IMG/VR virus record: IMGVR_UViG_3300031565_000186
Location: 1 to 35,092 of that record
Direction: 5' to 3' (one strand)
DNA: 35,092 nt
DNA from: a virus
Shown here: positions 556 through 35,092 of the stretch, one piece after another
How positions within the stretch are numbered: the stretch's first letter is position 1
Layout: every line of letters starts with the position of its first letter
Notes under the pieces: model-generated
What the model saw: the letters and a program-made list of their open reading frames with translations, nothing else
Databases searched by the model: none
Told to the model about the DNA's origin: nothing
Position numbers and translations under genes: made by a program

Positions 556-1035
556 TTAAAACCTCACCATCATGTAATAGTCAGACCCATCCGGTCCGTA
601 CTTTCTCATAATACTTTCTACCTCGAAACGTAGTGCCTTGGCAAACCTAAATGCGGTATCGTTATCGCTATTTACGCAGATCTGTAGTCTTTTTATGCCA
701 TTATTAGCTATTGCGGTATCGGTTAGTTGTTTAGAAGCTCGTATAACCGATATCGCATGGCGGTCTATCTCCTCTCCAGGTATAAGCCACATTTCTGCAA
801 CACCGTCCCAGAATGGCCTAATACCAAATGCAGAGATAACCTTGCCCCTGCCTATACCTGCCCAGCTCATACCATCTACTGCGTGATCCCAGACGTAATC
901 CAGATAGTTTGGTATCACGTTTACGAAGTCACGGTTTTCTTTCTTGAGCCGTATCCTGGTAAGATGCTCATAGCTTAGAGGCACAATGTGCTCGTCGTGG
1001 CCCATTCTTACCTGGGGGAGCTGCACTAAAGCCAT
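556..1035 (-). CDS. GNAT-fold protein, T7 gp13-like (sibling-strain copy)
   Basis: This 159-aa protein has the layout of a small GNAT acyltransferase-fold protein: a central strand pair (GKVISAFGIRPFWDGVAEMW), a helix after it (RHAISVIRASKQLTD), and a C-terminal strand-helix-strand (KRLQICVNSDNDTAFRFAKA then GF-type FEVES). In T7-like phages this position is held by gp13, needed for virion assembly although not known to be enzymatic. The ATG at 1035 overlaps the TAA of the terminase gene. The other copy (33935-34414) has the same length and differs at 17 of 159 residues by my count, mostly in residues 21-50. Both copies look intact, so both are under selection in their own genomes. Confidence 0.75.
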   Translation of the reverse strand: MALVQLPQVRMGHDEHIVPLSYEHLTRIRLKKENRDFVNVIPNYLDYVWDHAVDGMSWAGIGRGKVISAFGIRPFWDGVAEMWLIPGEEIDRHAISVIRASKQLTDTAIANNGIKRLQICVNSDNDTAFRFAKALRFEVESIMRKYGPDGSDYYMMVRF

Positions 1036-2558: not shown

Positions 2559-2970
2559 CGTCAGCCTCATACGTTGTGGTGATCTCTGGACCCTTCATGT
2601 TGATCCCAATGATCGAAGGCTTGTCCACGTTCTTCTCTACATCGAGCAAGCCACTAGCCTTAGCCAGAATACGCAGAACACTCACCTTGTCAAACATCTC
2701 AATCGTTGTGCCGTACTGACCAACCGTAACCTTCTTGATCGCAGCCAATGCTTCAGAAGGGATCTCATCTAGAGGCTTAACCTGACCAGTATGAAGATCA
2801 ATGATGTCAGTCATACGAGCCGTACCCATAGCAATCAGCTCAGTCGCAACAGCCTCTTTGTTCTGAGCCAAAGTCTCCGACCGGCCAATCCGGCGCTGCA
2901 ACACACGCGCACCACCGAACCGACCAACCGGCGGGATAGGTTTTATCTTATCCTCTTTCTTTCTAGCCAT
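2551..2970 (-). CDS. terS: Terminase small subunit
   Basis: This 139-aa protein carries the middle and C-terminal pattern of Terminase_2-type small subunits: helices around ELIAMGTARMTDIIDL, then the segment EALAAIKKVTV, then EMFDKVSVLRILAKASGLL. TerS recognises the packaging site and stimulates TerL, and it sits directly upstream of and overlapping terL. The usual N-terminal helix-turn-helix of the family is not obvious. The first 30 residues are a basic, proline-containing arm (MARKKEDKIKPIPP and on), so DNA recognition may use that arm or a partner. The ATG at 2970 overlaps the stop of the upstream gene. Family assignment is by motif and neighbourhood. Confidence 0.8.
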   Translation of the reverse strand: MARKKEDKIKPIPPVGRFGGARVLQRRIGRSETLAQNKEAVATELIAMGTARMTDIIDLHTGQVKPLDEIPSEALAAIKKVTVGQYGTTIEMFDKVSVLRILAKASGLLDVEKNVDKPSIIGINMKGPEITTTYEADDD

Positions 2971-3206
2971 TAGAACGGAATTTCATCGTCCAGCTTACCA
3001 GCGGCAGGAGCCGCTTGCTGAGAACGGTTGCCATCATCCTCAAACAGCTTCAACCAAACCTCACCCTCCTTGTTGGGTAAAGGCAATCCCTCAAGCTTGA
3101 TGCTGATCCCCTTGTCATTCTGAAAGGCAATGCCATGACGCAGCCAAACAGGCTTATCCCGGCCAGGCACTTCCTTCGCTTGCACAACACTAAATCGCTT
3201 GTTCAT
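2970..3206 (-). CDS. Small protein with SSB-like C-terminal tail
   Basis: This 78-aa protein has a compact N-terminal part with alternating hydrophobics (GIAFQNDKGISIKLEGLPLP then EVWLKLFED), a pattern seen in short conserved phage and plasmid proteins of unknown function. A flexible Ala/Gln linker follows, and the protein ends KLDDEIPF. That end is nearly the acidic tip of bacterial SSB (DDDIPF), the docking peptide for repair and replication proteins. It may be a minimal ssDNA-binding protein or a mimic that recruits SSB partners. A strong ribosome site (AGGAGA, 6 bases before ATG) and a candidate promoter at 3239-3267 suggest it opens the terminase transcript. The tail is clear; the function is inference. 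Confidence 0.75.
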   Translation of the reverse strand: MNKRFSVVQAKEVPGRDKPVWLRHGIAFQNDKGISIKLEGLPLPNKEGEVWLKLFEDDGNRSQQAAPAAGKLDDEIPF

Positions 3207-3238: not shown

Positions 3239-3267
3239 ACGATATCGCATAGAAAACGATATTACAA
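3239..3267 (-). promoter_or_regulatory. Candidate sigma70 promoter for the SSB-tail/terS/terL transcript
   Basis: On the minus strand TTGTAA (3262-3267) and TATCGT (3239-3244) are 17 bases apart. The interval also carries the 8-base palindrome CGATATCG at 3240-3247 and the heptamer ATATCGT twice. The GATATC core is shared with the perfect palindrome in the early control region (6444-6453), so one regulator might act at both. The -35 overlaps the stop codon of the 44-aa gene. Match quality is moderate and no transcript data exist. Confidence 0.45.
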
Positions 3268-3778: not shown

Positions 3779-4387
3779 CTATGCCGCCTCTGTTTCGTCA
3801 CTGTGCGGCTCTGTGAGAAGCTCTACGGCCTGATTAGCCAGCATGATCGCTGCTGACTGCACGACATCCGGCTTGATCCTCCATCCAGCGCCGATTGCCC
3901 TCGTGAAATAGTCTGTCGTCAAACACTGAAATTCAGCCCTTAACCTAGATAAGTCCAGTTCAACCTCGCAGTTAGTGCCAGATTTATCTATCTGCTCTTG
4001 AAGCTGTGCGTTTGTTTCTGCTTCACTTAGTTCCATTTGTTGTTTGGCTGTGAGCCTTGAGCGTAATGTGTCTTCGTATTTAACGTGAGGATCGAAGACG
4101 ATGCGGTTGCTGGTGGATCTCTGGCCTTTGTAGAATGGCTTTGCATAGACCATGTATCCGTAGTCTCTGAGCTTCCTGACGTGGTATCCTACTGCGGTTC
4201 GCTTGCTTCCGATGTCTTGTCCGATGCGTTCATTGCTGACGAAGGTGCGTCCGATGCTGTCGCAGTAGCTACAGAAGGCAATGAGAACCCGGAGGGTTTT
4301 GGGCGTGATCCGTGGATCTTTGATCGCTCTGATTGGTACGATTGCAAAGGCTCTTAGATCTTTGGCTCTGAGTTGTTTGGGTCTCAA
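3779..4387 (-). CDS. Winged-helix protein, replication-initiator type, TTG start
   Basis: This 202-aa protein has an N-terminal winged helix (about 28-82): TLRVLIAFCSYCDSIG, then FVSNERIGQDIGSKRTAVG as the helix-turn-helix, then LRDYGYMVY as the wing. This resembles HTH_36-type domains of phage and plasmid replication proteins. The C-terminal half is helical and charged. No ATG exists before the domain. The frame begins at TTG 4385-4387, which overlaps the upstream TGA as TTGA, with GAGGA about 9 bases upstream, so translational coupling from a TTG start is likely. It is one of two winged-helix proteins in this operon and may bind the origin or regulate early genes. Confidence 0.7.
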   Translation of the reverse strand: MRPKQLRAKDLRAFAIVPIRAIKDPRITPKTLRVLIAFCSYCDSIGRTFVSNERIGQDIGSKRTAVGYHVRKLRDYGYMVYAKPFYKGQRSTSNRIVFDPHVKYEDTLRSRLTAKQQMELSEAETNAQLQEQIDKSGTNCEVELDLSRLRAEFQCLTTDYFTRAIGAGWRIKPDVVQSAAIMLANQAVELLTEPHSDETEAA

Positions 4388-4914
4388 AACGGATAGTCCT
4401 CTATTGGGTCGGCTGGCTGCTCTCTCCGGGCGTATGTCTCTATGCGGTTTTCTTCCAAGCTTTGCCGATACATTTGGATCACGTTCATCGTGATGAGGTT
4501 TTTTTCTAGCAGTCTGTCTGCTCCTGATCCGGTGATGTATTCATCTCCTACCGCTTCGCCGTGGTTCATGCGCCTTGCGTTGATTGCATCGCTGTCCCAT
4601 GCGACTGACTTTGCTGGGCCTAGAATTGGTGGCTTGTATGCGTCTGAGCATTTCTGTGCTGCTTTGACCATGTTGTAGATTGTGGGCCATGATCGTGTGC
4701 GATTGTTCTTGCGGATGTCCTTGCCCATGTTTCGGAGGATGTTGGTTAGCCCTTCCTCGTTTATGGAGCTGACGATCTCGCTGTTGATGTCCTCGACCAT
4801 TGCTGTCATTTCTGTGGCTGCTCGATCAGGCGTATGGTTTGCAGGTACATCATACGACTGCAATTCTTTTTGCAGCCATGCGCCGATTGCTTTTGTTCTC
4901 TGCTCGTAATTCAT
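4384..4914 (-). CDS. 176-aa replication-region protein with SSB-like C-terminal tip
   Basis: This mostly helical protein lies between two winged-helix genes, overlapping the upstream one by ATGA and the downstream one by TTGA. Visible segments are an N-terminal helix (RTKAIGAWLQKEL), a helical middle with W and K/R-rich patches (DIRKNNRTRSWPTIYNMV), and a long C-terminal helix. It ends PADPIEDYPF, where the acidic residues plus terminal Pro-Phe resemble the SSB tail. The context suggests a replication accessory, perhaps a loader or adaptor that brings host helicase or primase. I do not recognise the fold, and no Walker motif is present. Confidence 0.65.
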   Translation of the reverse strand: MNYEQRTKAIGAWLQKELQSYDVPANHTPDRAATEMTAMVEDINSEIVSSINEEGLTNILRNMGKDIRKNNRTRSWPTIYNMVKAAQKCSDAYKPPILGPAKSVAWDSDAINARRMNHGEAVGDEYITGSGADRLLEKNLITMNVIQMYRQSLEENRIETYARREQPADPIEDYPF

Positions 4915-5597
4915 TGGATCATCTTTCTGTCTGTTTCCAGTGAGCCTAGAATAGCCTGCATCTGCTGGTCGCTTGTCATATCTTGCAAAGAGGGTTGCTG
5001 GATCTCATCATCCCAACGCTCACCGTTTAGCCATGTTGCCAAATGCGGCATGAATTTTTTATCTTGCTGTCCCCATGATCGGACAAAGAGCGAGAGCGAA
5101 TGTTGGATCTGATCGATGGGAGCTTTCTTCATTGCTGTCGCCAGCGCTTTACGAGCTGTACCCTTGCCAACCTTCTTTGGATAGATCTTCCAGAGATCCT
5201 CAAAAATGGACATATTATTAAGGTTATCTTTTACATGGTTATTACTTACTAGGTTAGTATGTAAATTTTTCACATCGGAACCTGTAAATTTTACATATCC
5301 GTTCTGTAAATTTTTCATATCGGGATTTGTTGACATATGAAGCTTGTAGCTGTTGCTCGTTTTGATGCCATTTCCCTTTGTCCTGGCTGTCTTTGTAATG
5401 AGACCGGCGGCTTCCAGCTTGTCCAGGTGAGTATGCACTGACTTCTCCGACATCTCACAATCTTCAGCAAGCTTGGCAATGCTGGGGAAACATCCATAAT
5501 CAGGATTGAACCGATCAGATAGATAGATCAGCACGATTTTGGTGGCTGGCTTCAGCCCTTTGATGGTCAGCGCCCAATTTGTCGCTTTGAATGACAT
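4911..5597 (-). CDS. Phage replication protein with HTH_36-type winged helix
   Basis: The N-terminus (MSFKATNWALTIKGLKPATK) leads into a winged helix: KIVLIYLSDRFNPDYGCFPS, SIAKLAEDCEMSEKSVHTHL and LEAAGLITK. After a low-complexity Asn-rich linker with two similar short segments (NLQNGYVKFTGS and DVKNLHTNLVS) comes the C-terminal module FEDLWKIYPKKVGKGTARKA followed by MPHLATWLNGERW, typical of replisome-organiser proteins of temperate phages. Such proteins bind the origin and bring the host helicase. I choose ATG 5597 (228 aa) because AGGG lies 8 bases before it. The in-frame ATG at 5615 has no ribosome site. With no phage polymerase visible, this is the best candidate initiator. Confidence 0.8.
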   Translation of the reverse strand: MSFKATNWALTIKGLKPATKIVLIYLSDRFNPDYGCFPSIAKLAEDCEMSEKSVHTHLDKLEAAGLITKTARTKGNGIKTSNSYKLHMSTNPDMKNLQNGYVKFTGSDVKNLHTNLVSNNHVKDNLNNMSIFEDLWKIYPKKVGKGTARKALATAMKKAPIDQIQHSLSLFVRSWGQQDKKFMPHLATWLNGERWDDEIQQPSLQDMTSDQQMQAILGSLETDRKMIQ

Positions 5598-5682
5598 CGC
5601 TTTTACCCTTTTCATTTGGGCAGGATCGTCCTATTCTGACCCTGCACTTGTTTTTGGTTCTTCTAGTGTACTTCAGTCCTAT

Positions 5683-5714: not shown

Positions 5715-6125
5715 TTACCAGGTCACAGTCGTGACTAAACAAGGCTCAACGGCGTATCGCTTGAATACCTTGAGATCATATACCTGGGCATCATCCTCAA
5801 AAACCACGCCATTGAAACTGTCCAAGACGATCTTGGCTATGTTGTCGATGTCTGGCTTGCCGGGGTAAATGATATCAGCCGCAGCCGCCGCCTTCCTTGC
5901 TTTGGTCCAACTCTTGGGGATCTCAAATTGTGCTTTGATAACCATCTGGCACGGCTTTTCTGTCGGTTCCAAGTTGTGCAAAGCCATGTAATCAGATGCA
6001 GCCGCAGCTAATCGATGCTCAAACTTGCGGGTTTTCTCGGGCGTGTAGACCCTGCCCATGCGAGTAAACCGGGGCCGACCCTTGCCGATGGGTTGACCAG
6101 GGAGCCATATATAAGTCGTGGTCAT
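5715..6125 (-). CDS. rusA: RusA-family Holliday junction resolvase
   Basis: RusA cuts four-way junctions formed in recombination and replication. The family signature is plain in 136 aa: the N-terminal GQPIGKGRPRFT (10-21), the segment VYTPEKTRKFE, and the acidic metal-binding core KPDIDN (D92 and D94) with LDSFNGVVFEDDAQV carrying D111 and D112. The length is close to the usual 120-135. The ATG at 6125 overlaps the stop of the RHH gene (ATGA), so it is second in the leftward early operon. It likely works with the annealing protein encoded at 7975-8700 on the other strand. Confidence 0.93.
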   Translation of the reverse strand: MTTTYIWLPGQPIGKGRPRFTRMGRVYTPEKTRKFEHRLAAAASDYMALHNLEPTEKPCQMVIKAQFEIPKSWTKARKAAAAADIIYPGKPDIDNIAKIVLDSFNGVVFEDDAQVYDLKVFKRYAVEPCLVTTVTW

Positions 6126-6376
6126 ATTCGTTTGAGCCAGTCTGTCACATCTGATTTGTCATCGTCTTCGATCACAGCACCGCTGCGCGCCGAAGCCCGT
6201 GCGCCGATGCTTGCTGCGATGGATGTGGTCGGCAACCCTTCCGATATCAATTCACTTGCCAAACGGCTTTGTGATATCCCCTGGGATTGGGAAGCGCTAT
6301 CCAAACGGGCTTTGACCCCAGCAGGCAATCGGACCACCAGAGCTTTCTTTTCTTCCATCTTTGTTTGATACTTCAA
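6122..6376 (-). CDS. Ribbon-helix-helix (Arc/CopG-like) regulator
   Basis: This 84-aa protein has a short strand KALVVRLPAGV, then helix A (KARLDSASQSQG), then turn and helix B (SQSRLASELISEGL), the ribbon-helix-helix layout. Such dimers bind short palindromes with the paired strands. An Ala/Ser linker and an acidic C-terminus (VIEDDDKSDVTDWLKRI) follow. It is the first gene of the leftward operon, beside the palindrome GTGATATCAC, and is the obvious candidate to bind it. The start is probably TTG at 6374-6376, with AAGGG 6 bases upstream. The ATG at 6358 lacks a ribosome site. A role as early-gene switch or auto-repressor is inferred. Confidence 0.75.
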   Translation of the reverse strand: MKYQTKMEEKKALVVRLPAGVKARLDSASQSQGISQSRLASELISEGLPTTSIAASIGARASARSGAVIEDDDKSDVTDWLKRI

Positions 6377-6432: not shown

Positions 6433-6461
6433 TTGACCCTATTGTGATATCACCTTAGTCT
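6433..6461 (+). promoter_or_regulatory. Candidate rightward early promoter with a palindromic operator in the spacer
   Basis: TTGACC (6433-6438) and TAGTCT (6456-6461) are separated by 17 bases. The spacer contains the perfect 10-base palindrome GTGATATCAC (6444-6453). A dimer bound there would block RNA polymerase. The first rightward gene begins at 6496 with AGGAG 9 bases before its ATG. A repressible promoter next to a ribbon-helix-helix gene is a standard switch layout; the pairing of this protein and this site is inferred. Confidence 0.55.
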
Positions 6462-6495
6462 AATTCACAGGACAACACAACAGGAGACTAGGACA

Positions 6496-6780
6496 ATGCA
6501 AACCATTACAACAAAATACCTTGGCCCTACTGACACCAAAGCACCACGGGTCAAGGCCATGACATCCAGTGGTCACAGAGGTTCAACCTATACTGTGGAG
6601 TGGGATGACAGCCTAAACATAGAGGGCAACCACGCTGACGCAGCACAAAAACTGTTAGACAAGCTGGGCTGGCGGGGTGAGTGGCGCATGGGTGCAATGG
6701 AAAGAGGCTATGTATTCGTGAACGCAACCGATCACAATTCACCAAAGCTTATGGCAAAACAACATGATTGGAGGGGCTAA
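6496..6780 (+). CDS. Conserved-type 94-aa early phage protein
   Basis: First gene of the rightward block. It begins MQTITTKYLGPTDTKAPRVK, then a strand (STYTVEWDDSLN) and a helix (NHADAAQKLLDKLGW), followed by a strand-rich end containing GYVFVN. The TKYLGPT-type start and helix ending in LGW are a pattern I associate with short early proteins of proteobacterial phages and plasmids; function unknown. AGGAG lies 9 bases upstream of the ATG. Its position right behind the palindromic promoter makes it likely to be made at once after infection or induction. Confidence 0.8.
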   Translation: MQTITTKYLGPTDTKAPRVKAMTSSGHRGSTYTVEWDDSLNIEGNHADAAQKLLDKLGWRGEWRMGAMERGYVFVNATDHNSPKLMAKQHDWRG

Positions 6781-6781
6781 A

Positions 6782-6877
6782 ATGGACGATTGGAAAGAGT
6801 GGGTCAAAGATACTATCGGAGTGGTGAGCCTGTTTGTCACCTTCTACCTTTTATTCTTTTTTGCGGGGATTTTGTGA
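6782..6877 (+). CDS. 31-aa single-span membrane peptide
   Basis: The ATG at 6782 follows the previous stop by 1 base, and the frame ends at TGA 6875-6877, which overlaps the next ATG (TGATG). The peptide has a charged N-terminus (MDDWKEWVKDT) and one hydrophobic helix (IGVVSLFVTFYLLFFFAGIL). Its role is unknown. It is too small and too early to be the main holin, given the two holin-like genes near the endolysin. A membrane modulator of host or superinfecting phage is possible. Confidence 0.55.
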   Translation: MDDWKEWVKDTIGVVSLFVTFYLLFFFAGIL

Positions 6878-18500: not shown

Positions 18501-18770
18501 AACAAAGTCTGTAGTCCGTGAAAGCTCACGACCACCAATGATTGTAAGAACGTCAGATGCTATGAGAGCAACAGTTAGAGTAATAGACCCCGTTCCATTC
18601 GCGTTAATACTGACCGTGTAATCAGTGGTAAGCGTTAGCTCCGTAGTCCCCTTGAAGACTGCGATATCACCATCGACCAAGATGTTGAACGTAAAGGCAT
18701 ATGGACCGGTTCCGGTATTGCCTGTGAACTGAACCCGGCGGGTTACTGGATTAATTGCGATATCACTCAT
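15576..18770 (-). CDS. Tail fibre with T7 gp17-like anchor, decapeptide stalk and S74 chaperone
   Basis: 1064 aa. Residues 1-160 match the T7-type fibre anchor (VTRRVQFTGNTGTGPYAFTF, DIAVFKGTTELTL, LNEQLDSNVIMTQQLDEKLG). Residues 190-310 carry a 10-residue repeat with Val or Ile at each tenth position. Residues 311-436 are Ala/Ser/Thr/Asn-rich and look helical. Residues 440-970 are a Gly/Ser/Thr-rich shaft with phrases such as LGIGTSSPSNLL. The last 91 residues (Ser974 onward, SDATLKTNVETLTGSLDAVK) form a Peptidase_S74 intramolecular chaperone that trimerises the fibre and normally cuts itself off before that Ser. A promoter candidate lies upstream. Confidence 0.92.
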   Translation of the reverse strand: MSDIAINPVTRRVQFTGNTGTGPYAFTFNILVDGDIAVFKGTTELTLTTDYTVSINANGTGSITLTVALIASDVLTIIGGRELSRTTDFVTAGDLLASSLNEQLDSNVIMTQQLDEKLGRGLFVNPGDVFTDLELPLKDDRKGTVLGFNATTGDPEPGPEIADVDSLASISADIKTLAEIQDGTVATDAITNVNTIRANVTTVSGISGNVTTVAGISSDVTTVAADGTDIGIVAGISSDVTTVSGISGNVTSVAGNASNINTVAADGADIGTVATSITNVNTVATDIANVNTNATNIASINTNATNITDIQNASANAASALASKNDAATSATNSANSATASETSRVASVAAQAAAETAETNAETAETNAASSASAASTSASNASTSETNAATSAATATTQAGIATTKAGEAATSATASASSASASEAAKDAALAALDNFDDRYLGSKASDPTLDNDGNALISGALYFNTTDNVMKVYDGSSWLAAYASLSGALLVANNLSDLASASAGRTNLGLGNSDSPTFAGLTTTADVSFGDSDKAIFGAGSDLQIYHDGSNSYISDQGTGNIILDANDSFQVKRGANTSAVFDTNAEVALYHNNSPKLATTSTGIDVTGTVTADGLTVDGTATINNIIDMTGSTANYIKAATSGGDLRFITNEGGTNKQRAIIANNGDLSLYEDTGSTPKFFWDASAESLGIGTSSPSNLLELDAGSGTNAGMTIRMGTGNSGANDSFIGFENSAGTEIIRTRYDNPLTSYVISSDTSGDILSVTRSGNVGIGTSSPSTPSGSCLSLYNATLPRLNFKNSTTGDGTFDGFELYMQGTLAGVNNKENGAIAFGTNDSERMRLDASGNLLVGTTNTDPIGNSVAGMRIGSTGFFNINAASAASGFFGRSGSDGDIVKLYKSGSIVGSIGNSTTNLLINSTSGSGLFFGSGTIAPMASGSLTGNSIDIGTSSYSYKDGYFGGTVNAANFNTTSDATLKTNVETLTGSLDAVKSLRGVSFDWIENGNSEVGVIAQEVEAVLPDVVSTNDQGIKSVKYGNMVALLIEAMKEQQAQIDELKAKLGE
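17841..18203 (-). repeat. 30-base period coding for a decapeptide stalk repeat
   Basis: Within the fibre gene twelve units have Val or Ile at residues 200, 210, 220 and so on to 310, usually preceded by Asn or Asp. The first six read like SGISGNVTTV and AGISSDVTTV and are nearly alike; the last ones become NTNATNIASI. The period is exactly ten residues with no indels. This differs from the 7-residue rhythm of a coiled coil and suggests a stacked beta fold. The DNA copies vary at third positions. Confidence 0.75.
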
Positions 18771-23287: not shown

Positions 23288-25687
23288 CTATTTATTCCTA
23301 TTGAAATCATCGGCAAACTTTTTACCCTCTGCGGCAGCGCCTTCTGCTGGGCTAACTATTGGAGAGGACTCGACCGTTGAGGGTGTGATGAAGTCACTTA
23401 GTCCGCCGGTTATTCCGCTAGAAAGCACCCTGCCCTCATTTTGAGCCATTCTCATCAAACGCAGATTTTCCTGACCTCCTGGGAAGCTATTGTAGACCCT
23501 ATCGACTACAGCGCCTAAGTCTTTAAACTTAATTACAAAGCCAGTTGGCAGGAGCGTTCCTTCATCATCGTAATGCAACTCAAGACCATCACCTGTGCTA
23601 TTATTTACGAACTCACCATAATCCGCCAATGAAGTGAAAGCTATTGCCTCATCCACAAAATCAGGAACAGTCACAGATCTTGGTATGTCAAAGCCATAAA
23701 TATCAAACGCCGCTTTTAGTGCATCGTCCTGTTTTAATAGCTGAAGATTTTGACTAACATCAATTTGAGAAACGCCGATTGGAACAACGTAGGTTCCTGT
23801 TTCATCGCTAACAGTTTGTTTATAGTCTGGAATAACATCGTTAAGCGCGCTGTTGAATGCTGTCTTAGCATCGGCACCATTCCGCATTCTCCACATTGCC
23901 ACCTTCTTAACAACTTCAAGTTGCTCATCGACAATCGACAATCCCTCGCTATCGGCACCGTTCAGATACGCTTGTTGGTACGAAACGAGCTGTGAGTCTG
24001 TGTTTATAATTTCTCTAAACTTACTGTCTGTGTCTGTTGGAAGATTTTCTTTAAGATCCTTTGCATCCATTCTGGAAACAGTAGCAAGCTCAAGCTTGAT
24101 CTTGTCATTATCCTGCAAGTACATACTTCTGACATACTCGGGAGCCAAACCAGCATTACGAAGCTCAGTAATAAACTTGTTGGCATACTTATCTCCTAGA
24201 TCTTTTCCAATTCTAGAAAAAATCGTAGTAGCTACATCGGCATCAACATTATCCAACATGGTTACAATGCTAGAAGCAAACTCTTTTGGCATAAGGTTTC
24301 TTTGGGCTTCGGGAACGCCGGTCTGTTCGTACTTTGTTTGAATCTGGTCAAAAACAAAAGCCAGCTCTGAACTGGCAAGAGCAAAGTTTCCTTCGTTAAT
24401 GCTCTCTTGAACTTCGGCTAAACTCTGACTTACTTCTTTATTTGTCGATATTACATACTTTGCAGCGTCATCTTGAAGAGCCGTTTGCTTGTCAACAATG
24501 GCTTGGCGAAAAGTCTCCATTCTGCTGATCGCAACCTGAGCGTCATCAGATGTTTTAATATCTTCGTTTAACTGCGTTAATACCGAGAGCGCATCTTCTG
24601 CGGTCATGTCACTAAGGGAGCCAACATTGTTGACGAGATCCATAGTGCTTTCCCATGAGTCAATTACCCTCTGGCCCTCTTCCTCACCAAACAGATCAAA
24701 TATCTTATTTTCGTCTAAAGCAAAATCAGGAGAAGGTGCTCCGGTTTGCATGGCAATGGTTGCATTATTGTTAATATAATCAATAGTTTCTTTTTGCCCC
24801 GTAGCTATTTCACTTGCAAGGTTTGCTTCAAGCCTGTTTACAAAATTTAAATTCTCTGAATAAGAAACCCCAGGCAGAGGCTTCTCTTTATACTTCTCAA
24901 GCAAAAACCTTTTTTCATTTATTCCGGCAGCTTCGTTGAATTGATAAATCCTGTTTTCTTTTATTGCTACCTTGAGGGTTGATTGAGCTACTTTATTGGC
25001 AGTTTTTTCCCCAACACCAAGATCTATTTGAGCCTGCACAAGCTCAGTGACAGCAAGCTCAATGCCGCTTTCTGTAGAACCAAGCCCAGGTGCGGTTGCG
25101 CCGTCTACGATTGCTTGAGATCTTGTGGAAACAGTGTCGTTGACGCGCTGCGCCATAGCAGCTTTAGCCTTCCTAAAGGCTATCTCAGAATATCTATTCT
25201 GATAATCAGATGTTTTACCTTGCAGTCTTGCGCCAAGAACACCGGCAGCAACGGGATCAACTACAGACAATGAAGCTTTGTACCCATCGTTTATGTCCGC
25301 CAATGCAGCTTGATAAGCAGGCATCGACATATTCTTTTTGTCAGCCTCAATCGTTAATGCTTGCATATCAGCAGTGGCAAGAGTTTCAATCTCAACCACA
25401 GCGATCCGGTTAGCGGCCTCGACAGCAGCTTTCTCAGCAATGCCTCTAGGACCGCCCTTTTCTTCTATGGCCTCAAGTGTGGGCAGCGCACCTTCCTCAC
25501 GCACACGCTCCTGTCCGCGCTCAACAGCCATCTCAGAGGCTTTCTTAAATGCGAAGTCAGACATCCGGTTTAATTGCTGAGAAAGAGTGTCGGCATACCT
25601 TGCCTGTTCCCGTATATCAGCAAAGTCAATATTCCCCGGCTGACGGGTTTGTAAGCCCAATCGCTGATATCGTGGAAGTTGTGCCAT
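23288..25687 (-). CDS. Internal virion protein, T7 gp15-like
   Basis: 799 aa, nearly all helical and Ala/Glu/Asp/Lys-rich, with few glycines. It starts MAQLPRYQRLGLQTRQPGNI and continues ADIREQARYADTLSQQLNRM, an N-terminal layout (short basic Pro-containing arm, then long helices) common to gp15-like core proteins of podoviruses. The C-terminus is Gly/Ser/Pro-containing and flexible (GITGGLSDFITPSTVESSPI). It lies between the gp14-like and gp16-like genes in the T7 order. In T7 gp15 forms the middle of the core stack and the DNA tunnel. Identification is by position and composition. Confidence 0.75.
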   Translation of the reverse strand: MAQLPRYQRLGLQTRQPGNIDFADIREQARYADTLSQQLNRMSDFAFKKASEMAVERGQERVREEGALPTLEAIEEKGGPRGIAEKAAVEAANRIAVVEIETLATADMQALTIEADKKNMSMPAYQAALADINDGYKASLSVVDPVAAGVLGARLQGKTSDYQNRYSEIAFRKAKAAMAQRVNDTVSTRSQAIVDGATAPGLGSTESGIELAVTELVQAQIDLGVGEKTANKVAQSTLKVAIKENRIYQFNEAAGINEKRFLLEKYKEKPLPGVSYSENLNFVNRLEANLASEIATGQKETIDYINNNATIAMQTGAPSPDFALDENKIFDLFGEEEGQRVIDSWESTMDLVNNVGSLSDMTAEDALSVLTQLNEDIKTSDDAQVAISRMETFRQAIVDKQTALQDDAAKYVISTNKEVSQSLAEVQESINEGNFALASSELAFVFDQIQTKYEQTGVPEAQRNLMPKEFASSIVTMLDNVDADVATTIFSRIGKDLGDKYANKFITELRNAGLAPEYVRSMYLQDNDKIKLELATVSRMDAKDLKENLPTDTDSKFREIINTDSQLVSYQQAYLNGADSEGLSIVDEQLEVVKKVAMWRMRNGADAKTAFNSALNDVIPDYKQTVSDETGTYVVPIGVSQIDVSQNLQLLKQDDALKAAFDIYGFDIPRSVTVPDFVDEAIAFTSLADYGEFVNNSTGDGLELHYDDEGTLLPTGFVIKFKDLGAVVDRVYNSFPGGQENLRLMRMAQNEGRVLSSGITGGLSDFITPSTVESSPIVSPAEGAAAEGKKFADDFNRNK

Positions 25688-31294: not shown

Positions 31295-32853
31295 TGCATA
31301 GCCTCCATTGTTGCTCCACCATCATTAGCAGTCGGCGGCCCTTGTTCGGCCATTGCTTGCGCCTGCATCTGTCGCATCATCATTTCCTGCTCTTCTGCTG
31401 TGGTGAGCAAGTCCTGTTTGATGTTCATCTTATCGGCAATGAATGCTGTGATCCGTGGGATCGACAATGCCATCTGACCCTGCGGGCCTAGAGAGTTGGC
31501 AATCTGCATAAACTGCACGATATCGTTTACCTCTTGTAACTTCTGGGCTTGAGCCAGAGGAGCCACCGGCGTGACCTTTACCTCTACACCGTTGACCTTG
31601 AGCGGCAGATCGATGTAACCAGCCTGGTCCATTACATAGAGAATGCGTGACACCAGCGGGATCATAGTCTCATCGATCAATCGACCAAACGCAGAACCCA
31701 GATTAGAAGCAAGCTCACGGGATCTTTCAGCAATCTCAGTCGCAGACCGGGCTGACATATTATCAGGCGGCAACGTATCATCCATCAAGATCTTCTTAAT
31801 GTTCATGCGCAGATCATTCATAACGATCTGACTTGTGTTAAAGTCACCGGCACGGGGCAGAGGAGACAGGGACGGACCCTGTGCGCCACCGTTACGAGCC
31901 ACACCAATAATTGCTCCAGGCTGGATCTTTACGTTCTGAGGATTGAGAACGCCATCGTCAGCAGCAGTATATACGCCAGAGATCGACAGAGAAGCATTCT
32001 TCAGAACCAACTCAACGGTCTTGTTTAGCGTCTTAATGTCAGCAATCGCAGTAACCAGGGGACCACGGCCATATATCTCACCGGCAACCTTCATGTAACG
32101 TGCAACGATGAATGGCGAAGACTTCATGGTGCGGTAAACCAGATCTTGCCGCTTACCAGGCCAGATAACATGATAGCAATAGATCGCTCTTTCGTAATCA
32201 TAGATCACAGCATCCATAAGATCGATCTCTTTAGATGGTGATCGTGATATCGCATCTACCAATTCCGGCGTCATTTCAGCATCAGGGAACTCTTGCGGTA
32301 TCGCTTCAGCCTTCATTCTTAGCTTGCGATACACATTATCGACATTGCCGAATGTACCTTCTTCAATCGAAACGAGATACTGAGGGATGGGTGTAAAGCG
32401 GATCGGAGTTGCCTCATCACCAGGCGTCACCATCATCACGGCAGTACCCACACAGAGATCCAGAAGGAACTCGCCCATAGCCAGATCAAAGTTAGTCTGG
32501 CGCATTACCTCAAACATCCGCTCAGTGTAAGCATCAAGCGCAGCTTGAGCCTGTGGCTGTTGTTCTTTTGGGATGCCAGTGCCAGCCTCTAAGCGACACC
32601 ATTGCTTCTGAGGTGGAAACAAGCCAGCCTGTATGCGGTTAGCGAAACGCTGAGTCGCTGAGATAGCTGTGGAGTCGAACACACGGCCCATCTTCTTTTG
32701 ACCGGCGGTGTTACCCTCATAGTTTCCATCGTACATATTGCGCTGCGGTAGAGCGAACTCGTAGCAATCCTCATAGATAGTACGCCATTGATCCTTGCGG
32801 GATTGGGCCTTGGCCTCACGCTCCATGATCTCTCTTACGTCTAGCCGAGCCAT
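31291..32853 (-). CDS. Portal (head-tail connector), gp8-like
   Basis: 520 aa. The gp8-type pattern is clear: RKDQWRTIYEDCYEFALPQR, then VFDSTAISATQRFANRIQAG and LFPPQKQW, then EFLLDLCVGTAVMMV, YGRGPLVTAIADIKTLN and the crown segment DTLPPDNMSARSATEIAERS. These are hallmarks of the Head_tail_con family. The C-terminus is Gln/Met-rich and likely disordered (EEQEMMMRQMQAQAMAEQ). The protein forms the dodecameric channel where terminase docks and DNA enters. The gene lies between the DUF6321-like gene and the Bbp19-like gene. Confidence 0.92.
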   Translation of the reverse strand: MARLDVREIMEREAKAQSRKDQWRTIYEDCYEFALPQRNMYDGNYEGNTAGQKKMGRVFDSTAISATQRFANRIQAGLFPPQKQWCRLEAGTGIPKEQQPQAQAALDAYTERMFEVMRQTNFDLAMGEFLLDLCVGTAVMMVTPGDEATPIRFTPIPQYLVSIEEGTFGNVDNVYRKLRMKAEAIPQEFPDAEMTPELVDAISRSPSKEIDLMDAVIYDYERAIYCYHVIWPGKRQDLVYRTMKSSPFIVARYMKVAGEIYGRGPLVTAIADIKTLNKTVELVLKNASLSISGVYTAADDGVLNPQNVKIQPGAIIGVARNGGAQGPSLSPLPRAGDFNTSQIVMNDLRMNIKKILMDDTLPPDNMSARSATEIAERSRELASNLGSAFGRLIDETMIPLVSRILYVMDQAGYIDLPLKVNGVEVKVTPVAPLAQAQKLQEVNDIVQFMQIANSLGPQGQMALSIPRITAFIADKMNIKQDLLTTAEEQEMMMRQMQAQAMAEQGPPTANDGGATMEAMQ

Positions 32854-33633: not shown

Positions 33634-33933
33634 CTAGCCCCCAAGTGTCGATGATTTTTGCTGTTGCTGGAGCAAGAGCCACTCAGACTGAGACATTCCC
33701 TCCGGCTTCTGATTCGGCCCCTCTTGACGCGCGGGAGAAAACAGAAGCCTTAAGCCACCAGAGCGGCGCAAACGGCGTCTACGCTGCACACCCTGCATCT
33801 CAGAACGCTCAGAGGAAGTCGCACGTTCCTCTGCGCGTGTGTTGGCCGCCGCAGCATCTTGCTCTGCACGAATTTGTGCTGCTGATTTAGGAGGGGGAGC
33901 CGAAGATCCACCACCGCCAAATAATCCACCCAT
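33634..33933 (-). CDS. T7 gp7.3-like small tail-assembly protein candidate
   Basis: 99 aa: MGGLFGGGGSSAPPPK, a charged helix (AQIRAEQDAAAANTRAEERA), and the core QRRRRLRRSGGLRLLFSPAR, then a Gln-rich C-terminus (MSQSEWLLLQQQQKSS). Compared with the sibling allele (318-554), the core is conserved and the C-terminus replaced. The arrangement resembles T7 gp7.3, a virion component needed for adsorption. That link is by pattern. GAGG lies 7 bases before its ATG, and the gene follows the GNAT gene by 1 base. Confidence 0.65.
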   Translation of the reverse strand: MGGLFGGGGSSAPPPKSAAQIRAEQDAAAANTRAEERATSSERSEMQGVQRRRRLRRSGGLRLLFSPARQEGPNQKPEGMSQSEWLLLQQQQKSSTLGG

Positions 33934-33934
33934 G

Positions 33935-34414
33935 TTAAAACCTCACCATCATGTAATAGTCGGACCCGTCTGGCCCGTACTTCCTCATAACACTTTCTAC
34001 CTCAAAACGTAGTGCTTTGGCAAACCTAAATGCGGTATCGTTATTCGTGTTTACGCAGATCTGTAGCCTTTTTATGCCGTTATTAGCTATTGCGGTATCG
34101 GTTAGCTGCTTAGAAGCCCGTATAACCGATATCGCATGGCGCTCAATCTCTTTGCCGGGGATCAGCCACATCTCCGCAACACCATCCCAAAAGGGGCGAA
34201 TGCCAAACGCACAGACAACCTTACCTCTCCCGATGCCAGACCAGCTCATCCCGTCTACGGCGTGATCCCAGACATAGTTAATGTAGTTAGGTATCACGTT
34301 AGCAAAGTCTTTGTTCTCTTCTTTAAGGTTTATCCTGGCTAAATGATCGTAGGTCAGCGGAACAATATGCTCATCGTGTCCCATCCTTACCTGGGGCAGT
34401 TGAACTAAAGCCAT
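33935..34414 (-). CDS. GNAT-fold protein, T7 gp13-like (main-genome copy)
   Basis: 159 aa, the intact main copy of the gene also seen at 556-1035. The main differences lie in residues 21-50 (TYDHLARINLKEENKDF here), while the acyl-CoA-type core (GKVVCAFGIRPFWDGVAEMW) and the C-terminal half are nearly unchanged. It overlaps the terminase stop as TAATG and is followed 1 base later by the gp7.3-like gene. In T7 gp13 sits between capsid-core genes and helps core assembly. Here it sits directly after terL, a different gene order. Confidence 0.75.
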   Translation of the reverse strand: MALVQLPQVRMGHDEHIVPLTYDHLARINLKEENKDFANVIPNYINYVWDHAVDGMSWSGIGRGKVVCAFGIRPFWDGVAEMWLIPGKEIERHAISVIRASKQLTDTAIANNGIKRLQICVNTNNDTAFRFAKALRFEVESVMRKYGPDGSDYYMMVRF

Positions 34415-35092
34415 TAGAAGACCTCGAAATCTGTGCTTGCGTTGAATGTTTGCCCACCCGCAAAGCTTCCGCCATAGGTTCCGCGCCGCAATCTGCGTTG
34501 CTCACCGCCACCGAGCATAAGATATCCAAACGCATCCCCGCAGTGAGAGTGCTCATTCTTTACCGGCGCATCTTTAAACCGATCCTGCCCAGCGCCCATA
34601 GACACACGCTTGAAGAAATAGCCGCCACTCAGAGATTTCCGCAGCCGCAGGCACTTCTTGCTAACGAGAAGTCCAGGTTTACCACCAACCAGCCGGTTCA
34701 TAGGAGCCGCAGCAGCCTCACGCCTTACATTGAAAGCATTGCTATCTGTTGGCTGTGCGCGAAACCCAATAGACTGCAAGTGATCGAAGGCTGTAACCTC
34801 ATAGATCTCGTCACGCTTGTTACCGGCGGGGTCTCCCCAGATCTGCACCTCTGCTTTATTGAAGCTTGCAGCGATCTTGCCTATCAACTCCTGCCCAAAG
34901 CGTTCAAGCCCCATGTCAAACGTCACAAGCTCATCGAGGATCTTCCACGCGCCGCCAGATGTTCGCTGCCCAAAGATAGCCGCCGGTGTCAAACCAAAGT
35001 CAACGCCGATCTGTAGCGGGTATTGCGGATCATACTGCACATCCGCAGACATCATTTCATCGTCATACTCCGGCCAAACCGGCCTGCCTTCC
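34414..35092 (-). CDS. terL: Terminase large subunit, partial (main-genome 3' end)
   Basis: These 679 bases encode the C-terminal nuclease of TerL, running off the right edge. The region matches 1035-1713 with the same spacing and no indels. Only two amino acids differ in the visible overlap (FNAS for FSAS, EVF for EIF), while many third-position changes exist, so purifying selection is strong. Joined at 34965/1587 it completes the terminase gene of the main phage. An internal ATG at 35055 is not a start; the gene continues upstream across the junction. Confidence 0.85.
   Translation of the reverse strand, partial: EGRPVWPEYDDEMMSADVQYDPQYPLQIGVDFGLTPAAIFGQRTSGGAWKILDELVTFDMGLERFGQELIGKIAASFNKAEVQIWGDPAGNKRDEIYEVTAFDHLQSIGFRAQPTDSNAFNVRREAAAAPMNRLVGGKPGLLVSKKCLRLRKSLSGGYFFKRVSMGAGQDRFKDAPVKNEHSHCGDAFGYLMLGGGEQRRLRRGTYGGSFAGGQTFNASTDFEVF
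34966..35092. repeat. 127-base exact match to 1587-1713 (assembly junction)
   Basis: Every base from 34966 to 35092 equals 1587-1713, and the base before differs (G versus T). This marks the ring closure, giving a unit length of 33,379 bp. A length of exactly 127, ending exactly at the window edge, equals the largest k-mer commonly used by de Bruijn assemblers, so the repeat is probably a product of assembly and not a biological direct repeat. Confidence 0.85.

What the first reader, a model, noticed from the sequence alone, without database searches (positions are those of the whole stretch)
6433..6461. Perfect palindrome GTGATATCAC in the spacer of a divergent early promoter beside an RHH gene
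The operator lies between the -35 and -10 of the rightward promoter and next to the start of the RHH gene, the layout of a compact genetic switch. A related GATATC-centred palindrome (CGATATCG, 3240-3247) lies in the promoter before the terminase genes, so the same protein may couple early and late control. No integrase or large repressor is seen, so any lysogeny would depend on this small protein.
Basis: partly seen in the sequence, partly recalled or inferred. Interest (0 to 1): 0.6.

Follow-up and report, generated by a model that had tools for sequence, protein, structure and literature searches.

The report
Phage self-repressor with operators inside genes
A family of marine phages keeps the same short DNA site in its first promoter, inside the gene of the small regulator next door and before its packaging genes, which looks like one tiny protein controlling several stages of infection; nothing has been tested at the bench.

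Summary
The palindrome GTGATATCAC (6444-6453) is real and fills the spacer of the rightward promoter beside an 84-aa ribbon-helix-helix (RHH) gene. The window alone does not make it significant: 1.7 perfect 10-bp palindromes are expected in its non-coding DNA, 1 found. Relatives do: in 43 of 43 records found by protein searches the site sits in that promoter. Its half ATATCAC is invariant, the outer half varies (32 of 43 keep the full palindrome), although the RHH proteins fall to 37% identity. The site is not only in promoters. Of 12,122 coding hexamer positions tested for conservation beyond the amino acids, GATATC inside the RHH gene (6273) ranks first; GATATC at 749, 6243 and 25666 ranks 9, 17 and 31 (repeated). 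The motif GATATCRCAW occurs 8 times, 0.25 expected (one duplicate, partly post hoc). The promoter before the SSB-terminase genes carries the same core. Best reading: the RHH protein represses itself and the rightward early genes and probably acts on the terminase promoter. Binding is inferred. No integrase; no prophage in one pattern-limited scan; lysogeny is unsupported.

The parts
6122..6376 (-). Gene of the 84-aa ribbon-helix-helix (RHH) protein, TTG start; first gene of the leftward cluster
   Evidence: ORF; PHROGs no match; Pfam RHH_5 E 0.0018, 18.4 bits, below the cut-off of 26; 24 relatives in IMG/VR, 16 more with a profile; two helices at the expected places in a low-confidence model
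6433..6461 (+). Rightward early promoter: -35 TTGACC 6433-6438, -10 TAGTCT 6456-6461 (weak, by eye)
   Evidence: sequence; -35 TTGAC kept in most relatives; not found by the generic scan
6444..6453 (.). Operator O_R, GTGATATCAC; conserved half ATATCAC toward the RHH gene (GATATCACAA on the - strand, 6442-6451)
   Evidence: 43 of 43 records keep GTGATAT on the + strand side and ATATCAC on the RHH strand
6266..6280 (-). Intragenic site 1 in the RHH gene, codons 33-37, GGG ATA TCR CAA AGC (GATATC 6273-6278)
   Evidence: rank 1 of 12,122 coding hexamer positions; 16 of 17 comparable relatives keep GATATC, 1.7% expected; same with representatives <80% identical and from a second reference; codon table
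6242..6248 (-). Intragenic site 2 in the RHH gene, codons 43-45 (GATATCG), 30 bp from site 1
   Evidence: 12 of 14 comparable relatives keep GATATC, 4.7% expected, rank 17
3239..3267 (-). Promoter-like element before the SSB-terminase genes: TTGTAA-N17-TATCGT, with CGATATCG over the -10 and AATATCG after the -35
   Evidence: TTG-N20-TATC in 63 of 69 loci examined; GATATC in the 75 bases upstream in 56 of 70; place in window
749..754 (.). Conserved GATATC inside the acetyltransferase-like gene 556-1035 (ATGCGATATCGG on the - strand)
   Evidence: 11 of 12 comparable relatives keep it, 1.9% expected, rank 9 of 12,122
25666..25671 (.). Conserved GATATC at codon 6 of gene 23288-25687
   Evidence: 14 of 14 keep it, 15.8% expected, rank 31; kept through CGA/AGA codon changes; 19 of 19 aligned contigs
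2970..3206 (-). SSB-like gene (C-terminal DDEIPF), first gene behind the second promoter
   Evidence: position next to terS matches MEP301 gp50, annotated ssDNA binding protein; tail motif by eye
6496..6780 (+). First rightward gene; differs between relatives behind the same operator
   Evidence: PHROG 3199, unknown function; different first genes seen
32246..32255 (+). Further GATATCRCAW match inside the head-tail adaptor gene; weakly conserved
   Evidence: GATATC kept in 3 of 6 comparable relatives

Best explanation
GTGATATCAC is the main operator of the 84-aa RHH protein encoded next to it. RHH dimers bind half-sites of the form ATATCAC / GATATCRCAW (inferred). Bound in the spacer between -35 and -10 they keep RNA polymerase off the rightward early promoter (inferred from position). 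Further copies, two inside the RHH gene and one or two in the promoter before the SSB-terminase genes, would let the same protein limit its own leftward operon and act on the terminase promoter, so that the early rightward genes are shut off and the late genes are timed as the protein accumulates. Shown here: the sites, their position and their conservation at the DNA level. Inferred: that the RHH protein is the factor that binds them, and repression as the outcome.
For: Site present in the same promoter in 43 of 43 records found by protein searches, with proteins down to 37% identity and R16-L17-P18 invariant in the presumed DNA-contact strand. The core stays while its distance from the -35 shifts by about 4 bp in the GTGATATTAC group, so it is not simply part of the promoter. 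DNA scans by the site alone found further family loci (L034, L050, L074, L078) and an unrelated prophage group (18 loci by my count, e.g. L036) in which the site lies between two divergent genes, one above Pfam's Arc cut-off (36.4 vs 20.4 bits) and one just above the HicB cut-off (21.3 vs 21). Intragenic GATATC ranks first for constraint beyond the amino acids. GATATCRCAW 8 vs 0.25 expected. MEP301, the nearest isolate phage by terminase (67.5%), has a 53-aa RHH-like gene beside RusA and GATATC in the spacer of its rightward promoter.
Against: No binding data. The protein scores below Pfam's RHH cut-offs and the structure model is poor (mean pLDDT 57.5). In MEP301 none of the coding sites is kept (its acetyltransferase GATATC is at another codon) and GATATCRCAW is absent. 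The late site overlaps a putative -10 box. Spacing from operator to intragenic site 1 varies (173 to 188 bp), which speaks against strictly phased looping. 6 of 10 testable coding GATATC sites show weak or no excess conservation. Other unexplained conserved hexamers exist (614, 3938).
Confidence: 0.7

Rival explanations
1. The sites are bound by a host protein or another phage protein (for example one of the HTH_36 replication proteins), and the RHH gene only happens to be next door.
For: No binding shown. HTH_36 proteins at 4911-5615 and 3779-4387 also exist. Conserved GATATC sites are spread over the genome.
Against: The site stays with the RHH gene in 43 of 43 records while the first rightward gene is swapped. 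An unrelated prophage group has the same palindrome between two other RHH-type genes.
Confidence: 0.17
2. The element before the SSB-terminase genes is only a promoter: GATATC there is part of a TATCGT -10 box and has nothing to do with the RHH protein; the early site alone is an operator. (Compatible with the main explanation for the early site.)
For: TTG-N20-TATC anchors 63 of 69 loci examined; TATC is invariant in 10 of 10 diverged representatives, which were chosen by that anchor.
Against: The bases just before the -10 are nearly as constrained (G in 9 of 10, A in 9 of 10), and some relatives share the 10-mer GTGATATCGT between early and late sites.
Confidence: 0.4
3. The coding GATATC sites serve something other than transcription control: packaging, DNA segregation or compaction, or translation.
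For: Sites at 749 and 25666 have no promoter seen beside them (by eye); RHH proteins can act as centromere binders, e.g. omega of pSM19035 (PMC9499535, passages).
Against: Site 1 lies in the regulator's own gene and shares GATATCACAA with the promoter operator. No ParA found among the window proteins scanned.
Confidence: 0.2
4. A small lysogeny switch.
For: A divergent layout with an operator resembles immunity regions (recalled).
Against: No integrase family found; no prophage copy in the genome scan, which used two peptide patterns only. For the related MEP301 its authors doubt a functional integrase (PMC8024684, passages).
Confidence: 0.07

Closest known systems
[quoted passage not shown]
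   Same: Small viral RHH protein that represses its own gene and binds three other sites, with highest apparent affinity at a structural-gene promoter (PMC5569661, passages read)
   Different: Archaeal virus, different binding consensus; the passages I read do not mention conserved operators inside coding DNA
Arc/Mnt-type RHH repressors of phages such as P22
   Same: RHH fold and phage early control (recalled); an Arc-family gene lies beside the same palindrome in the prophage group found here
   Different: Temperate immunity region (recalled); no Arc-family match for the window protein
Omega of pSM19035 (RHH ParB and repressor)
   Same: Heptad 5'-WATCACW-3' (PMC9499535, passages) resembles the half-site TATCACA here
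   Different: Works on 7-10 consecutive heptads with a ParA partner; here single or inverted half-sites and no ParA found
Cluster A mycobacteriophage immunity repressors with stoperators
   Same: One phage repressor with many sites spread over the genome (PMC9283540, abstract and passages)
   Different: Monomeric two-domain repressor on 13-bp asymmetric sites in promoters and short intergenic spaces; here a small RHH protein and sites inside genes in mixed orientation
Methylophilales phage MEP301
   Same: Nearest isolate by terminase; RHH-like gene gp52 beside RusA; GATATC in the rightward promoter
   Different: Lacks the coding sites and GATATCRCAW

Membership tests
RHH (MetJ/Arc/CopG) superfamily | Match to an RHH profile above the curated cut-off | tested here: not met
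   Window protein RHH_5 18.4 vs 26 bits; relatives up to 23.2 vs 26; a profile of the family hits CopG-family PDB chains only at E 0.19-0.27. I therefore call it RHH-like
RHH (MetJ/Arc/CopG) superfamily | Strand followed by two helices in about 50 residues | tested here: inconclusive
   Helices 21-32 and 36-45, no strand formed in the monomer model, mean pLDDT 57.5
RHH (MetJ/Arc/CopG) superfamily | Dimer binding DNA through the paired strands | not testable with these tools
   needs purified protein
Auto-regulating viral RHH repressor (SvtR-like in action) | Candidate sites at its own control region and at another viral promoter | tested here: met
   O_R, intragenic sites, SSB-terminase promoter; binding itself not tested
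Omega family | Contiguous heptad arrays and a ParA partner | tested here: not met
   No array seen at the site (by eye); no ParA among the window proteins scanned
Temperate immunity region | Integrase or prophage copies | tested here: not met
   the genome scan used two peptide patterns only

The most novel reading that the evidence does not exclude
A probably virulent marine phage family times its whole infection with one 80-residue RHH-like protein whose operators are written not only into promoters but into protein-coding sequence, held there over long divergence by rare codons, including two inside the regulator's own gene.
Probability: 0.35. Interest if true: 0.65.

Novelty: new variant of a known kind. 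Interest (0 to 1): 0.5.

Why it matters
Here comparative sequence alone gives, for uncultured marine podophages, a regulator, its likely recognition sequence and a site map, all directly testable with a gel shift. The coding-sequence sites are the unusual part: they suggest that operator constraint shapes codon choice in phage genes, and that scans of synonymous sites can find regulators in phages that cannot yet be grown.

Tried and rejected
GATATC over-representation as such: significant against dinucleotide shuffles, not clearly so against synonymous shuffles; dropped as evidence.

A 5-codon window test of synonymous conservation: column permutation gave 319 of 5000, and other genes have windows at least as low; replaced by the hexamer test, which conditions on the amino acids and on codon use.

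Strict looping between O_R and the intragenic sites: spacing varies from 173 to 188 bp. Internal promoters at the coding sites: none seen by eye. Rightward promoter by generic scan: not found. Group M loci (9) as a third RHH case: the 63-aa protein of those contigs has no RHH match in Pfam, was found in 5 of the 9 loci, and the site overlaps an open frame; not counted as support. Of the 39 other hit loci checked, 36 have the site in an open frame of 100 aa or more and 3 do not (L029, L093, L094); these look like chance hits, but I did not study each.

Fold search with the RHH model was not run because the model is poor. Literature: searches; the last ('intragenic operator' with phage and repressor) returned no paper. 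I searched no further, so I make no claim that such operators are unreported.

Full report
What is there. The window is a 35,092-base virus record. Leftward genes run from an 84-aa RHH-like gene (6122-6376) through a RusA-like resolvase and replication proteins to an SSB-like gene, the terminase genes and the virion genes; rightward early genes start at 6496. GTGATATCAC lies at 6444-6453 between a -35 TTGACC and a weak -10 TAGTCT. In the window alone this is not beyond chance: 13 perfect 10-bp palindromes, one outside genes, 1.7 expected there.

Conservation of the operator. Protein searches gave 24 relatives in IMG/VR, 16 more with a profile, one from the SSB-side search (L158) and one MAG contig (L196). 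With the window that is 43 records. All 43 carry GTGATAT followed by CAC (32), TAC (6), CGG (4) or CGT (1) in the rightward promoter. Read on the RHH strand, ATATCAC is in 43 of 43 and the outer half varies. The proteins range down to 37% identity, and the rightward gene behind the operator is swapped among relatives. In the GTGATATTAC group the element lies about 4 bp further from the -35. These searches did not use the operator, so the association is not built in.

Searching by the site. Two DNA patterns scanned through IMG/VR gave 67 and 56 stretches. Besides the family they contain a prophage group of 18 loci (my count) in which the palindrome lies between two divergent genes, an 85-aa protein above the Arc cut-off and a 53-aa protein just above the HicB cut-off (examined in L036). 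This is independent support that RHH-type proteins go with this palindrome. Of the 39 remaining hit loci checked, 36 have the site in an open frame of 100 aa or more and look like chance.

Sites inside genes. For 12,122 coding hexamer positions I asked how often relatives with the same amino acids (representatives under 88% identical) keep the hexamer, against codon usage. GATATC at 6273 in the RHH gene is first (16 of 17, 1.7% expected); GATATC at 749 is 9th, at 6243 17th, at 25666 31st. Of ten testable GATATC positions four are in the top 31; by mean score GATATC is first of 1,661 hexamers with at least three positions, and 7th of 1,654 when the RHH gene is left out. The result holds with representatives under 80% identical (ranks 1, 12, 18, 27 of 4,856), and with contig G002 as reference, where 6273, 749 and 25666 recur at ranks 1, 10 and 54 of 11,605. 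The p-values assume independent relatives and are best read as ranks. At 25666 the site survives a change of arginine codon family. Six of the ten sites show weak or no conservation.

A sharper motif. The RHH-strand operator (GATATCACAA), intragenic site 1 (GATATCACAA) and, on the other strand, the sites at 3241 and 749 (GATATCGCAT) share GATATCRCAW. It occurs 8 times in the window, 0.25 expected from dinucleotide shuffles. The motif was drawn from four of these and 34128 duplicates 749, so three (8984, 18755, 32246) are new. Of these GATATC is kept in 3 of 8 comparable relatives at 18759 and 3 of 6 at 32246; 8984 is not in the tested list. MEP301 has no GATATCRCAW.

The second promoter. Upstream of the SSB-like gene, 63 of 69 loci examined carry TTG-N20-TATC; in 10 diverged representatives chosen by that anchor the preceding G and A are kept in 9 of 10. 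GATATC is there in 56 of 70 loci. Most also have an ATATCG-like or GTATCR-like half just after the -35 (by eye). In several relatives early and late sites coincide as GTGATATCGT. The -10 reading remains a fair rival.

Lifestyle. No integrase or known repressor family was found. One scan of 84,980 genomes found only a 6.8-kb MAG contig. In the phage collection tblastn found no relative of the protein at E up to 1. The nearest isolate by terminase is Methylophilales phage MEP301 (67.5%); it has an RHH-like gene beside RusA (RHH_1 17.7 vs cut-off 20.5 bits) and GATATC in the spacer of its rightward promoter, but none of the coding sites. I therefore read the system as a timer in a lytic programme rather than a lysogeny switch; this is inference.

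Known relatives. It works most like SvtR of SIRV1, an RHH protein that represses its own gene and binds a structural-gene promoter (PMC5569661, passages). Membership in the RHH superfamily is likely but formally below Pfam cut-offs, with a poor model.

Noticed in passing
360-1713 and 33715-35092: The right end of the window is an 86%-identical second copy of the terminase/acetyltransferase region, so the contig overlaps itself through a diverged strain; counts over the whole window double this part.
   Followed up: partly
6492-6784: The first rightward gene is about 84-85% identical in DNA to genes near the left ends of Roseobacter phages CRP-5 and CRP-13, which match nowhere else in the 3-kb query; suggests exchange and perhaps a Rhodobacterales host.
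   Followed up: partly
L036:9427-9959: Prophage group with two palindromes between divergent HicB-like and Arc-like genes, followed by a ParA-like gene.
   Followed up: partly
614-619 and 3938-3943: AGAAAG in the acetyltransferase-like gene and TTAAGG in gene 3779-4387 are also strongly kept beyond the amino acids; no explanation.
   Followed up: no
L233:2190: Contig G003 carries a second copy of the SSB-promoter element about 630 bases upstream of the first.
   Followed up: no
L111:9600-9760: Another marine phage group has the palindrome in a promoter-like stretch after a terminator-like sequence, with a LexA-like HTH gene upstream.
   Followed up: partly
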